Assembly (NCBI GenBank): GCA_903923175.1
Contig: CAIXWQ010000822.1
Span: forward strand, 1 to 48,732
DNA length: 48,732 bases
Reading direction: 5' to 3'
DNA from: an uncultured delta proteobacterium
Lineage (GTDB): Bacteria; Myxococcota_A; Polyangia; Polyangiales; JADJMO01
Part shown: positions 26,565 to 44,573 of the stretch, in pieces
Position numbering within the stretch: position 1 is the first letter of the stretch
Layout: each line of letters starts with the position of its first letter
Notes under the pieces: model-generated
Databases searched by the model: none
The model's input: only the letters and a program-made list of their open reading frames with translations
Told to the model about the DNA's origin: nothing
Program-made: the position numbers and the translations under genes

Positions 26565-27557
26565 TCAGCGCGCGGGCGGCGGCGCGGCCGAGCGACCGGC
26601 CTCCTTGTTGGGCGACGACGGCGTGTGGATCACCGGGCCGCTGCGGATGACGTTCGAGCGCAGGCGCTGATCGAGGATCTCCTCGGCGCGCCGCCCCGCC
26701 TCCAGCATCTTCTCGGTCTCGACACCCGTGCGCACGCCCATCTCGCCGAGCAGCGCGACCAGGTCCTCGCTGCACGCGTTGCCGGTGAAGCCGGCCGAGT
26801 ACTTCGCCGCGCCGGTGGCCGGCTGGCCGCCGATCGCGCCCATCGACGAGTCGACGTAGCGAACGCCCATCTCGAGCATCGCGATCGAGTTCACGATGCC
26901 GGTGCCGCGCGTGTCGTGGAAGTGCGCGATGAACTCCGCCTTCGGGAAGTCGGCCTTGAGCTGGCCGATGCGCTGCCGCACGAGGACCGGGTTCGCCATG
27001 CCGGTGGTGTCGCCGAGCATGATCGTCTGCGCGCCTTCTTCGAGGTAGAAGCGCGTGATCTTCGCGACGTCTTCGTACGGCACGTCGCCGCCGACCGGGC
27101 AGCCGTAGACGGTGCCCGCACAGCCGACGACGCGGATCCCGAGCGCGTGCGCGCGCTTCATGATGGCCGCGTGCTCGGCCATCGCCTCGGTGTGCGTCAT
27201 GCGGAAGTTGAGGGTGTTGTGCTTCTCGCTCGAGGAGATCATCAGGATGATCTCGTCGGCGCCGTGGCCCTCCTTCTGGCAGACCTCGAGCCGGTCGAAG
27301 CCCTTGGTGTTGGGCATCAGCACAAGGTGCGAGACGCCGGGGCGGCGCTTGATCCCCTTGAGCACCTCCACGCAGTCGGCGAACTGCGGCAGCAGCTTCG
27401 GGTGCGAGAACGAGGTGACCTCGACCTTCTTGAAGCCGGCGTCGGTGATCCGATCGATCATCTCGATCTTCTGCGCCGTGGGGACGAGGACGGGCATCGA
27501 CTGCAGGCCGTCGCGGGCCCAGCACTCGCAGACGGTGACGGATTCCGGGATGGGCAC
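26565..27557 (-). CDS. HMG-CoA lyase-like (DRE-TIM) protein lacking the catalytic Cys
   Basis: This 330-residue protein starts at GTG 27557 with GAGGAG upstream. The ATG at 27623 would overlap the preceding gene. It matches HMG-CoA lyase: ARDGLQS with Arg15-Asp16, VEVTSFSHPK, MPNTKGFDRL, GDTTGMANP, HFHDTRGTG with metal ligands His212/His214, and a C-terminal TGVETEKMLEAG. Human HMG-CoA lyase has GGCPYA with the mobile-loop Cys266; here the segment reads GGQPATGAAKYSAGFTGN, with Gln245 at the Cys position and a short insertion. It probably cleaves or forms a related acyl-CoA (a 3-hydroxy-3-alkylglutaryl-CoA or similar) by altered chemistry. It is the last gene of the five-gene operon, 40 bp after the phosphopantetheinyl transferase. 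Confidence 0.8.
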   Translation of the reverse strand: MPIPESVTVCECWARDGLQSMPVLVPTAQKIEMIDRITDAGFKKVEVTSFSHPKLLPQFADCVEVLKGIKRRPGVSHLVLMPNTKGFDRLEVCQKEGHGADEIILMISSSEKHNTLNFRMTHTEAMAEHAAIMKRAHALGIRVVGCAGTVYGCPVGGDVPYEDVAKITRFYLEEGAQTIMLGDTTGMANPVLVRQRIGQLKADFPKAEFIAHFHDTRGTGIVNSIAMLEMGVRYVDSSMGAIGGQPATGAAKYSAGFTGNACSEDLVALLGEMGVRTGVETEKMLEAGRRAEEILDQRLRSNVIRSGPVIHTPSSPNKEAGRSAAPPPAR

Positions 27558-27597
27558 GGGGAGACTCCTCGCAGCGTTCGGTTCGGGGCGGGTCACT

Positions 27598-28356
27598 TCA
27601 CGGGTCAGCGCCCGAATTGCCACGAATCGGGCGCGCCGGGGAGTCGCCGAGGGCGACCCGGAGCTCGTCGGGCGGTTCGACCGCCAGCGTCACGATTCTC
27701 CCCCCCTCACGACGCCACGCGCCGTGCAGAGAGCGCTCGCCGATCCGGGCCTCGAACGGCGCGAAGCCGTCCGTTCCCGGCTCGCCACGCCAGCGGACGT
27801 CGACCGAGCGGGTGTCGGCGCGTAGCCCCGTTCGCAGCACCTTCAGCGCGCTCTCCTTGGCGCTCCAGACGAGCGTCACGCGCGCGTCGCGCTCCGCCGG
27901 CACCCCCACCAACCCGTCGATGCGCGCCTGCTCGGCCTCGGTGAAGAACAGCTCGGCCAGCGCCTCCGCGCGCGGCTCGACGAGCTCGACGTCGCAGCCC
28001 AGGCGGCAACCGATCGGTCCGACCGCGGCCATCGCGACCCCGCCGCTGTGGCTGAGCGACAGCTCGACCGGCGCCGGTTCGCCGTCGAGCAGCGGCTCGG
28101 GCGAGCCGTCCGCCCTCGCGCGGACGGACCACTCCGCCCGCGCGTCGGCTGGCGCGCCGAACGCGCCGAACGCGCCGAACGCGCCGAACGCGTCGGACGC
28201 CGCGCGCAGGACGCAGCGCGCCGTCCAGCGACCGAGCCGGAAGTCCGCCGCGCGCTTGGGCACGCGCAGCGCCGCGAGCGTCACGCGCTCCGCCGCCGAC
28301 AGCCACGCGTCGTCGGCGGGGACGTCGTCGAGGGTGCGGAGCAGCCAGCCGATCAC
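27598..28356 (-). CDS. 4'-phosphopantetheinyl transferase, Sfp-type
   Basis: This 252-residue protein, from a GTG start 21 bp after the carboxylase stop, has the Sfp/AcpT motifs. They are RLGRWTARCVLR near the N-terminus, the Mg-binding GCDVELVEPR, FFTEAEQARI and the signature WSAKESALKVL. It transfers phosphopantetheine from CoA to carrier proteins. The obvious client is the four-ACP synthase two genes upstream in the same operon, whose acceptor residues are Thr instead of Ser. A four-fold Ala-Phe-Gly repeat lies at about residues 56-67, encoded by a 9-bp tandem repeat. It is slightly longer than typical Sfp proteins (~220-230), mainly because of this insertion. Confidence 0.88.
   Translation of the reverse strand: MIGWLLRTLDDVPADDAWLSAAERVTLAALRVPKRAADFRLGRWTARCVLRAASDAFGAFGAFGAFGAPADARAEWSVRARADGSPEPLLDGEPAPVELSLSHSGGVAMAAVGPIGCRLGCDVELVEPRAEALAELFFTEAEQARIDGLVGVPAERDARVTLVWSAKESALKVLRTGLRADTRSVDVRWRGEPGTDGFAPFEARIGERSLHGAWRREGGRIVTLAVEPPDELRVALGDSPARPIRGNSGADP
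28154..28189. repeat. 9-bp tandem repeat in the phosphopantetheinyl transferase gene
   Basis: GCGCCGAAC is repeated four times without change, followed by a fifth degenerate copy (GCGTCGGAC). The in-frame unit encodes Ala-Phe-Gly on the minus strand. Unit number could change by slippage without breaking the frame. Confidence 0.9.
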
Positions 28357-42835: not shown

Positions 42836-42896
42836 GACGGAGCCTCGGGAGTGGAACTCGGTGACGGAATCGGTCGCGGGGGGCGGGCCCTGGCGT

Positions 42897-44573
42897 TCAG
42901 CTCGGGCGCGTCTTGCCGTAGAGGGCGTCGCGCACCTGATCGAGGTCCTCGATCAGCCCGACCTGCCCGCGGTGGATGGCCTCGACGCCGAGCGCCTGGG
43001 CGAGCGGGCCGACGAGGCCGTCGTGCACGCCGCCGGCCCCGACCACCCAGCGCATCCCTTCGGAGACGACCTTGAGCGCGGCCTCGCGCGCGTAGATCCG
43101 CGAGAGCGCGGCGAGCGTCGGCGCGTCGAAGCGGCCGTCGGTCTTCGCGTTCAGCGTGCCGGCCGCGGCGCCCGCCGCGCGCTTGGCGAACGCGCCGGCG
43201 CACTCGGCCCACGCGATGAGCTCGCCGAGGCGGAGCAGCACGTGCTGGTGGCGCGTGAGGCGCGCCGCGCGGCTGCGCTCGAGCAGCTCGCCCATCGCGC
43301 GGAGCCCCTGCGCCGCGAGCAGCGCGCCGACGTTCGGGTGCTTGCCGTGCAGCGCGTCGAGCTCCTTCGCCCGCTCCGCGTAGTACTGGCCGCGCGTCTT
43401 GAGGTGGAGCTGCCACCGGTCGCGCGCGATGGTCATCTCGAGGATCTCGCTCGTCCCCTCGTAGATGGTCGTGATGCGTACGTCGCGCTTGTACTTCTCG
43501 ACCATGTACTCGTGGACGTAGCCGTAGCCGCCGAGCGCCTGGATCGAGGCCTCGGCCGCGGCGTTCCCCGCCTCCGACGACATGTACTTGGCGATCGCGC
43601 CCTCGGTGTTGAACTGCCCCTGCATGCCGTGGGCTCCGTCGATGAGCTCCGCCGTCTCCTCGATGCACGCGCGCCCGGCCTCGAGCTGCGCGATGCGCGG
43701 GATGATCAGCTTGTGCGTGTACCCCTGCTTCTCGGAGAGCGGCGAGCCGCCTTGCACGCGCTCGACCGAGTACGGGATCGCGCGGTCGAGCGCCCCCCAG
43801 CCGGCGCCGAGGCCGAACGACGCGACCATCACGCGCGTGTACCCGAACACCGCCTGCGCCTTCAGCAGCCCTTGCCCCTCGACGCCGCCGATCAGGCGAT
43901 CGGCGTCGACGTACACCTCGTCGAGCGTGAGCGGCGCGGTGTTGGAGAGTCGGATTCCGTGCTTCTCCTCGTGCGGGCCGGCCGAGAACCCCTCGGCCCC
44001 TTTCTCCACCACGAACCACGAGGGCCCGTCCGGGGTCGCCGCGAGGATCGTGTAGAAATCGGCGATGCTGCCGTTGCTGATCCACTGCTTGGAGCCGCTG
44101 ATGCGGTAGCCGACGACCTTGCCGTCCTCCTCGATGCGCGTGGCGACGGTCTTGATCGCGCCGAGGTCGCTGCCGGCCGAGGGCTCGGTCGCGCCGTACG
44201 CGACGAGCGCCCCCTCCTCCGCGATCTTCGTCAGCCACTTCTGCTGCTGCGCAGGGGTGCCGCCGACGCTGATGGGATCGCTGCCGAGGAAGGTCGCGAG
44301 CACCGAGGTCGCGACCCCGAGATCCACGTGCGCGAGCGCCTCGCAGGTGCGATAGACGTCGAAGGTGGAGCCGCCGAGGCCGGAGTGCTCGGCGGGCACG
44401 AACAGCAGCTGGATGCCGAGCTCGCTGCCGTACATCCGGCGGATGACCTCGAGCGGGACCTCGTCGGCGCGATCCCACGCGAGGAGCTTCTCGTCCGAGA
44501 GCTCGCGGTGGGCGAATTCCTTCAACGAGGAGAGCACGCTCTCCAGCGATTCCTTGTCGAGTCCTGCGGCCAT
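42897..44573 (-). CDS. Acyl-CoA dehydrogenase family protein
   Basis: This 558-residue flavoprotein starts at ATG 44573 (MAAGLDKESL) after GGGGAAG. It has FAD/substrate motifs VAYGATEPSAGSDLGAIKT and GSKQWISNGSIADFYT. The C-terminal helical domain has IQALGGYGYVHEYMVEKYKRDV and the catalytic Glu372 in TTIYEGTSEI. An extra ~150 residues follow, as in long ACADs with an added C-terminal domain. The family oxidises acyl-CoA to 2-enoyl-CoA with electron transfer to ETF. It is the first gene of the operon, 61 bp before the synthase, which lacks an enoyl reductase domain. It could adjust saturation of the product or prepare a starter unit; direction is unknown. Confidence 0.88.
   Translation of the reverse strand: MAAGLDKESLESVLSSLKEFAHRELSDEKLLAWDRADEVPLEVIRRMYGSELGIQLLFVPAEHSGLGGSTFDVYRTCEALAHVDLGVATSVLATFLGSDPISVGGTPAQQQKWLTKIAEEGALVAYGATEPSAGSDLGAIKTVATRIEEDGKVVGYRISGSKQWISNGSIADFYTILAATPDGPSWFVVEKGAEGFSAGPHEEKHGIRLSNTAPLTLDEVYVDADRLIGGVEGQGLLKAQAVFGYTRVMVASFGLGAGWGALDRAIPYSVERVQGGSPLSEKQGYTHKLIIPRIAQLEAGRACIEETAELIDGAHGMQGQFNTEGAIAKYMSSEAGNAAAEASIQALGGYGYVHEYMVEKYKRDVRITTIYEGTSEILEMTIARDRWQLHLKTRGQYYAERAKELDALHGKHPNVGALLAAQGLRAMGELLERSRAARLTRHQHVLLRLGELIAWAECAGAFAKRAAGAAAGTLNAKTDGRFDAPTLAALSRIYAREAALKVVSEGMRWVVGAGGVHDGLVGPLAQALGVEAIHRGQVGLIEDLDQVRDALYGKTRPS

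What the first reader, a model, noticed from the sequence alone, without database searches (positions are those of the whole stretch)
26565..44573. Five-gene operon that looks like a self-contained secondary-lipid pathway
Acyl-CoA dehydrogenase, KS-AT-KS-ACP4-KR-DH synthase, single-chain carboxylase, phosphopantetheinyl transferase and HMG-CoA-lyase-like protein lie in one direction with gaps of 61, 76, 21 and 40 bp and a strong terminator at the end. The synthase resembles PUFA-type PfaA proteins, but the partner genes differ from pfaBCD, and the carboxylase is built in. This combination would provide extender, carrier activation, chain building and product trimming from one transcript. I know no described product for it.
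Basis: partly seen in the sequence, partly recalled or inferred. Interest (0 to 1): 0.82.

Follow-up and report, generated by a model that had tools for sequence, protein, structure and literature searches.

The report
Lipid synthase with threonine carrier domains
A small, apparently transferable gene set builds an unknown long-chain lipid with a giant enzyme whose carrier domains all have threonine where known carriers have serine, which suggests that a basic protein modification can sit on a different amino acid than textbooks say.

Summary
The five minus-strand genes exist as described, with gaps of 61, 76, 21 and 40 bp. Comparison across genomes changes the picture. The conserved unit is acyl-CoA dehydrogenase (ACAD), Pfa-like synthase and phosphopantetheinyl transferase (PPTase). 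It often includes a single-chain acetyl-CoA carboxylase and is scattered over Myxococcota, Acidobacteriota, Actinomycetota and Calditrichota. The HMG-CoA-lyase-like gene is not part of it: among 49 scanned loci only the window has it. A family relative has it on the other side of the unit, and its active-site loop lacks the catalytic cysteine. The "terminator" has its T-run on the opposite strand. The synthase resembles the published Type R secondary-lipid synthase, whose Koribacter copy also has a carboxylase gene between synthase and PPTase, so the general idea is known. What is new is that every carrier domain has threonine at the phosphopantetheine site: 4 of 4 in the window, 84 of 84 in this clade, 92 of 95 in a sister clade with the PPTase fused on. 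All other catalytic residues are kept. E. coli AcpP S36T is reported non-functional. The most likely reading is an iterative long-chain synthase whose linked PPTase modifies threonine. The product and the threonine modification are unproven.

The parts
42897..44573 (-). Acyl-CoA dehydrogenase (558 aa, FAD type), first gene of the conserved unit
   Evidence: Pfam PF02771/PF02770/PF00441. It lies directly upstream of the synthase in all related loci that cover that side. Best-scoring NCBIfam model is acryloyl-CoA reductase, 216.7 bits, far below its cut-off of 640.
34121..42835 (-). Iterative type I Pfa-like synthase KS-AT-KS-ACP4-KR-DH (2904 aa)
   Evidence: Pfam and TIGR02813; catalytic residues conserved in 17 of 17 clade-1 full-length synthases
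41420..42814 (-). KS1, Cys-His-His intact
40109..40996 (-). Acyltransferase, GHSLG and HAFH motifs (malonyl type by recall)
38156..39778 (-). KS2 with intact Cys-His-His (not a Gln-type chain length factor); query for the genome surveys
   Evidence: surveys
37712..37927 (-). ACP1; Thr codon at 37826-37828 in place of the phosphopantetheine Ser
   Evidence: AF2 model pLDDT 85.9 with Thr34 first in helix II; ACP fold by Foldseek, TM 0.81-0.87 in most top hits.
37388..37603 (-). ACP2, Thr site
37070..37285 (-). ACP3, Thr site
36752..36967 (-). ACP4, Thr site
35249..35923 (-). Ketoreductase, Tyr/Ser intact
34166..35020 (-). Dehydratase, His plus Glu (Glu in place of the usual Asp; 17 of 17 in clade 1)
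28378..34044 (-). Single-chain biotin carboxylase, 1888 aa, BC-BCCP-ACC central-CT
   Evidence: Pfam; same layout as the multidomain ACC SACE_4237 (PMC6491548); tree of relatives
27598..28356 (-). Sfp-type PPTase with GCDVE and WSAKESALK motifs
   Evidence: PF01648; motifs in relatives; adjacent to the synthase or carboxylase in 10 of 11 loci found through the synthase
26565..27557 (-). HMG-CoA-lyase-like protein, lineage-specific neighbour; loop GGQPATGAA without Cys
   Evidence: NF004283 257 bits vs cut-off 246; alignment to HMGL structures; relatives
26511..26538 (+). Hairpin terminator; T-run is on the + strand, for the convergent gene
25904..26485 (+). Convergent ORF without Pfam match; a homologue sits beside HMGL in L235

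Best explanation
The conserved core is a transferable three-gene unit: ACAD, synthase and PPTase. In the window it carries an added single-chain acetyl-CoA carboxylase. Proposed mechanism: (1) the carboxylase makes malonyl-CoA; (2) the linked PPTase attaches 4'-phosphopantetheine to the threonine of the tandem ACPs; (3) the AT loads malonyl units and the two KS domains extend the chain iteratively; (4) KR and DH reduce and dehydrate each keto group; (5) because the synthase has no enoyl reductase, the ACAD sets how saturated the chain is, most likely as a trans enoyl reductase and otherwise as a dehydrogenase of the finished chain; (6) a long-chain, partly unsaturated acyl product is handed to housekeeping lipid enzymes, since no thioesterase or ligase is linked. 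Shown by sequence: gene order, domains, catalytic residues, Thr at the site, co-occurrence. Inferred: steps 1, 3, 4 and 6. Step 2 is a strong inference, step 5 a weak one (about even odds between the two directions). The HMGL-like gene is a neighbour, not a working part.
For: Thr in 176 of 179 ACPs that have a residue at the site: clade 1 84 of 84, clade 2 92 Thr and 3 Ser. The loci were chosen by KS2 or carboxylase homology, not by ACP sequence. The motif LEADLG[IV]D-T-VKQAE is otherwise near-invariant; ACP fold kept and Thr at the start of helix II. Own genome's Pfa-like ACP has Ser. PPTase in 10 of 11 synthase-found loci and fused to the synthase in 22 of 27 clade-2 loci (Pfam-verified for two). 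In three clade-2 arrays the first ACP is Ser and the others Thr, as if both are served by one machinery. KS1, AT, KS2, KR and DH residues conserved in 17 of 17. ACAD upstream in 28 of 28 loci. Carboxylase of the SACE_4237 kind, which makes malonyl-CoA; in clade 2 split carboxylase subunits occur instead. The interleaving of phyla in both trees fits horizontal transfer.
Against: E. coli AcpP S36T could not replace wild type as a lapD suppressor and was read as catalytically dead (PMC9456370), so generic PPTases may not accept Thr. No experiment shows modification of any Thr ACP. 5 of 11 synthase-found units have no such carboxylase, and one (L187) has no PPTase nearby. Clade 2 has neither ACAD nor an ER domain, so the ACAD may not be a substitute ER. 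No ETF genes, thioesterase or ligase were seen to recur nearby (clusters only, most neighbours were not annotated). No expression data.
Confidence: 0.6

Rival explanations
1. The Thr ACPs are never phosphopantetheinylated. They are structural or dead domains, and the chain is carried by another, Ser-type ACP in trans, or the synthase is inactive.
For: Ser is the known attachment residue; E. coli AcpP S36T is non-functional.
Against: All other catalytic residues and the rest of the ACP motif are near-invariant across four phyla, which a dead domain would not keep. A PPTase is linked or fused in nearly all cases. No separate ACP gene family recurs around the unit.
Confidence: 0.25
2. The five genes are one pathway, with the HMGL-like protein trimming the product by C-C cleavage.
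For: 40-bp gap, same strand. In the window's family both genomes with the synthase have the HMGL gene nearby (window, G004) and the three without the synthase lack an HMGL hit at E <= 1e-60.
Against: Among 49 scanned loci the HMGL gene is found only in the window. In G004 it lies upstream of the ACAD, with other ORFs between. It occurs without the synthase in G767 (86%) and G021 (65%). The loop has Gln where HMG-CoA lyases have the catalytic Cys (role of Cys recalled).
Confidence: 0.1
3. The ACAD works in the oxidising direction and the unit makes a conjugated or 2-enoyl lipid, not a reduced one.
For: No ER domain in the synthase. ACADs are normally dehydrogenases. The ACAD has the extended length of very-long-chain types, which are among its PDB matches.
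Against: The highest-scoring NCBIfam model is acryloyl-CoA reductase, though far below cut-off. Direction cannot be read from sequence.
Confidence: 0.35

Closest known systems
Type R secondary lipid synthase (Shulse and Allen 2011, PMC3098273; parts 1-3 and found passages read)
   Same: One large PfaA homologue with KS-MAT-second KS/CLF-ACP3-6-KR and a PPTase gene downstream, scattered across phyla. In Koribacter an ACC gene lies between synthase and PPTase, as here.
   Different: The passages list no DH domain and no ACAD, and the word 'threonine' does not occur in the main text. KS2 here keeps its Cys. I had no named Type R sequence to place on a tree.
PfaA of omega-3 PUFA synthases (TIGR02813)
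   Same: KS-AT, tandem ACPs and KR; 995.5 bits
   Different: Below the 1010.1-bit cut-off; a second KS and a DH in the same chain; Thr ACPs; no pfaB, pfaC or pfaD partners
SACE_4237 multidomain acetyl/propionyl-CoA carboxylase of Saccharopolyspora erythraea (PMC6491548; part 1 and found passages read)
   Same: About 200 kDa single chain with BC, BCCP, ACC central and CT
   Different: There it is essential and supplies malonyl-CoA for general fatty acid synthesis; here it is linked to a synthase. Enzyme activity not tested; its sequence was not compared directly.
Enediyne-type iterative PKS (recalled)
   Same: KS-AT-ACP-KR-DH without ER, PPTase fused in clade 2 as in those enzymes
   Different: Two KS domains, tandem Thr ACPs, no enediyne genes nearby; not compared by tree

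Membership tests
Type R secondary lipid synthase | KS-MAT-CLF-ACP(3-6)-KR in one protein | tested here: inconclusive
   Order matches with 4 ACPs, but the second KS keeps Cys-His-His and a DH follows
Type R secondary lipid synthase | PPTase gene downstream | tested here: met
   28356-27598; 10 of 11 synthase-found loci
Type R secondary lipid synthase | KS falls in the Type R clade | not testable with these tools
   No named Type R sequences could be fetched; genomes searched were unnamed
PfaA (TIGR02813) | Score above curated cut-off | tested here: not met
   995.5 vs 1010.1 bits; relative L235 875.0, clade-2 L164 1012.7
pfaABCDE PUFA synthase | pfaB, pfaC (KS-CLF-DH2) and pfaD (ER) partners | tested here: not met
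   Only five genes on this strand; none matches. No further family recurs
Acyl carrier protein | ACP fold | tested here: met
   AF2 model pLDDT 85.9; 25 PDB matches at E <= 0.001, the top ones known ACPs
Acyl carrier protein | Ser at the phosphopantetheine site | tested here: not met
   Thr in 4 of 4 window ACPs and 176 of 179 family ACPs
Multidomain ACC (SACE_4237 type) | Single chain BC-BCCP-ACC central-CT near 200 kDa | tested here: met
   1888 aa, Pfam domains in that order
Multidomain ACC (SACE_4237 type) | Acetyl/propionyl-CoA carboxylase activity | not testable with these tools
   Needs enzyme assay
HMG-CoA lyase | Family model score | tested here: met
   NF004283 257 vs 246 bits
HMG-CoA lyase | Catalytic Cys in the glycine loop (recalled) | tested here: not met
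   GGQPATGAA against GGCP in 1ydo and 2cw6; same loop in L226 and L227
Sfp-type PPTase | G.D.E and W..KE motifs (recalled) | tested here: met
   GCDVE and WSAKESALK in the window

The most novel reading that the evidence does not exclude
A whole lineage of iterative type I lipid synthases, found across at least four bacterial phyla, has moved the 4'-phosphopantetheine arm from serine to threonine. Its linked or fused PPTase has co-evolved to modify threonine, which would keep these carriers out of the reach of the cell's general holo-ACP synthase and ACP hydrolases. This would be a new site for one of the oldest protein modifications.
Probability: 0.6. Interest if true: 0.87.

Novelty: new variant of a known kind. 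Interest (0 to 1): 0.73.

Why it matters
Carrier proteins are taught as serine-modified without exception that I know of (recalled). A natural family with threonine in 176 of 179 carriers, nearly always with a linked PPTase, would give a testable exception and possibly an orthogonal carrier/PPTase pair. It would also make the product of a widespread orphan lipid synthase class reachable, because the unit is compact enough to express in a laboratory host.

Tried and rejected
Five-gene operon as a conserved unit: rejected, the lyase does not travel with it. Carboxylase as an obligate partner: rejected, missing in 5 of 11 synthase-found units and not found elsewhere in those five genomes. Second KS as a chain length factor: rejected, Cys-His-His in 17 of 17 clade-1 and 26 of 26 clade-2 synthases. 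Carboxylase as the 'long-chain acyl-CoA carboxylase' type: my first guess; dropped because the length and the ACC central domain fit SACE_4237 better, and the paper treats LCC as a separate group. Conserved accessory genes around the unit: none found beyond close relatives. ACAD as certain replacement for ER: not kept as certain, because clade 2 has neither. Two first motif scans used wrong patterns and found nothing; the corrected one is. The two directions for the ACAD cannot be told apart from sequence.

Rows dropped before counts: L199 (886-aa fragment on a 3.1-kb contig) from the carboxylase/PPTase tally; 5 of 184 ACP rows with a gap at the site; loci found through the carboxylase (L203-L208, L042, L052, L087 and others) from the 11-locus tally, since they would bias it; L139 dropped from the carboxylase tree as a duplicate of L029. 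In one search one clade-2 synthase (L151) was lost to an antisense ORF by my simple gene caller and counts as 'not fused'. Searches sampled 188, 247 and 296 genomes, not all that exist.
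Full report
What is there. The five minus-strand genes and their gaps (61, 76, 21, 40 bp) are as described. Pfam and NCBIfam give an acyl-CoA dehydrogenase, a 2904-aa KS-AT-KS-ACP-KR-DH synthase, an 1888-aa BC-BCCP-ACC central-CT carboxylase, an ACPS-superfamily PPTase and an HMGL-like protein. The synthase reaches 995.5 bits against the PfaA model, below its 1010.1 cut-off. The hairpin at 26511-26538 is stable on both strands, but its T-run is on the + strand, so it suits the convergent ORF 25904-26485. 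No terminator-like site was found on the operon's strand in 25800-45100.

Which genes belong together. I searched relatives of the carboxylase in 84,980 species genomes (80 loci kept of 275 relatives) and of the second KS domain in 188 genomes of the window's phylum (44 with a match), 247 genomes of the phylum of an Acidobacteriota locus (18) and 296 of the phylum of a Mycobacterium locus (2). The close clade (clade 1) has the ACAD directly upstream of the synthase in 26 of 27 loci that hold the synthase start. The 27th, L141, has the end of an ACAD gene at the contig edge. L235 from the window's own family makes 28 of 28. Of 11 clade-1 units found through the synthase and holding its 3' side (L139, L142, L186, L187, L188, L189, L191, L197, L198, L202, L235), 10 have the PPTase in the locus and 6 have the single-chain carboxylase, one of these (L197) on the opposite strand. 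The five without it have no match for a 782-residue C-terminal part of it anywhere in their genomes (these are draft genomes). In the other direction, nine genomes with a carboxylase but no neighbouring synthase have no synthase at all. So the core is ACAD-synthase-PPTase, and the carboxylase is a frequent but optional partner.

The lyase. An HMM of the HMGL-like protein found it only in the window among 49 loci. In G004, of the window's family, an 83% identical copy lies upstream of the ACAD instead of downstream of the PPTase, with other ORFs between, and that unit has no carboxylase. But G767 (86%) and G021 (65%) have the gene without the synthase. Its loop reads GGQPATGAA where the solved HMG-CoA lyases 1ydo and 2cw6 read GGCP, and two relatives keep the Gln. 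That this Cys is catalytic is recalled.

Transfer. In the carboxylase tree the synthase-linked rows mix Myxococcota, Acidobacteriota, Actinomycetota and Calditrichota, while 41 Actinomycetota rows, none with a synthase found beside it, form a group of their own (quick method; some contigs there are too short to tell). The KS1 tree also interleaves phyla and puts the window with G004 and then G089. The carboxylase tree likewise joins the window to L029, the G089 contig, so G004 probably lost the carboxylase.

The carrier domains. All four window ACPs read DLG[IV]D-T-VKQAE, with Thr at the position of the phosphopantetheine Ser. An HMM alignment of 184 ACP rows from 36 clade-1 and 33 clade-2 loci gives Thr 176, Ser 3, gap 5; clade 1 is 84 of 84 Thr. 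The three Ser are each the first ACP of a clade-2 array whose other ACPs are Thr (L152, L158, L169). The loci were picked by KS2 or carboxylase homology, so the ACP residue was not selected for. Flanking positions are near-invariant. The Pfa-like synthase elsewhere in the same genome has Ser (L004). An AlphaFold2 model of ACP1 (pLDDT 85.9) puts the Thr first in helix II, and Foldseek matches solved ACPs at TM 0.81-0.87 in most of the top rows, including ACPs in complexes with holo-ACP synthase. KS1, AT, KS2, KR and DH residues are intact in 17 of 17 clade-1 synthases; the DH has Glu where Asp is usual. So the synthase looks active, and its carriers have no Ser at the site.

The sister clade. 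In clade 2 (about 45% identical), 22 of 27 loci have the PPTase in the same open frame as the synthase; Pfam confirms this for L164 and L150. Eleven of 27 have a carboxyltransferase gene near and seven a biotin-carrier gene (domains confirmed for L164). These loci lack the single-chain carboxylase and the adjacent ACAD. Two clades thus couple the same functions by different gene architectures, which supports a working link between the synthase, its PPTase and malonyl supply.

Literature. Shulse and Allen 2011 (PMC3098273; parts 1-3 of 7 and found passages read) describe Type R: KS-MAT-CLF-ACP3-6-KR with a PPTase downstream, with an ACC gene between in Koribacter. The word threonine is not in its main text. 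Livieri et al. 2019 (PMC6491548; part 1 of 5 and found passages read) describe SACE_4237, a single-chain acetyl/propionyl-CoA carboxylase. PMC9456370 (found passages) reports that AcpP S36T and S36C cannot replace wild-type AcpP as lapD suppressor. A paper on Pfa-like hybrids (PMC13291983, found passages) confirms the conserved Ser in its ACPs. Searches for Thr-linked phosphopantetheine found no paper (six phrases, zero hits), and broader searches listed nothing on it by title or abstract. These cover open-licence PMC papers only.

Mechanism. The best reading is in the section Best explanation. Shown: gene order, domains, residues, distribution. Inferred: malonyl supply, iterative chain building, Thr phosphopantetheinylation. 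Weak: the direction in which the ACAD works and the identity of the product. No further gene family recurs nearby (neighbours were clustered by similarity, most were not annotated), so the product probably enters general lipid metabolism.

Verdict. As a 'secondary-lipid operon' this is a new member of a described class, with one gene wrongly counted in. As a synthase family with threonine carriers and its own PPTase it is a variant that I have not found described, and it can be tested with one mass-spectrometry experiment.

Noticed in passing
L164, L168, L170, L171 and other clade-2 loci: A sister clade of Thr-ACP synthases has the PPTase fused at the C-terminus and, in one family (f23), carboxyltransferase and biotin-carrier genes downstream.
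   Followed up: partly
L152, L158, L169: Mixed ACP arrays: the first ACP has Ser, the others Thr.
   Followed up: partly
window 34166-35020: The DH domain has Glu in place of the usual catalytic Asp in all 17 clade-1 synthases.
   Followed up: no
window 27598-28356: PPTases of this clade nearly all read GCD.E, with Cys where Ile or Val is usual in Sfp-type enzymes (recalled); a possible mark of Thr specificity.
   Followed up: no
window 25904-26485: Uncharacterised convergent ORF without Pfam match whose homologue (49% over 167 aa) also sits beside the HMGL gene in L235.
   Followed up: partly
window 15237-17312: Protein kinase domain fused to an FGE-sulfatase (formylglycine-generating-enzyme-like) domain.
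   Followed up: no
L031 (Minicystis rosea) and L034, L043, L080 (Acidobacteriota): Close single-chain carboxylases without the synthase in the genome, outside the Actinomycetota group where this enzyme type was described.
   Followed up: partly
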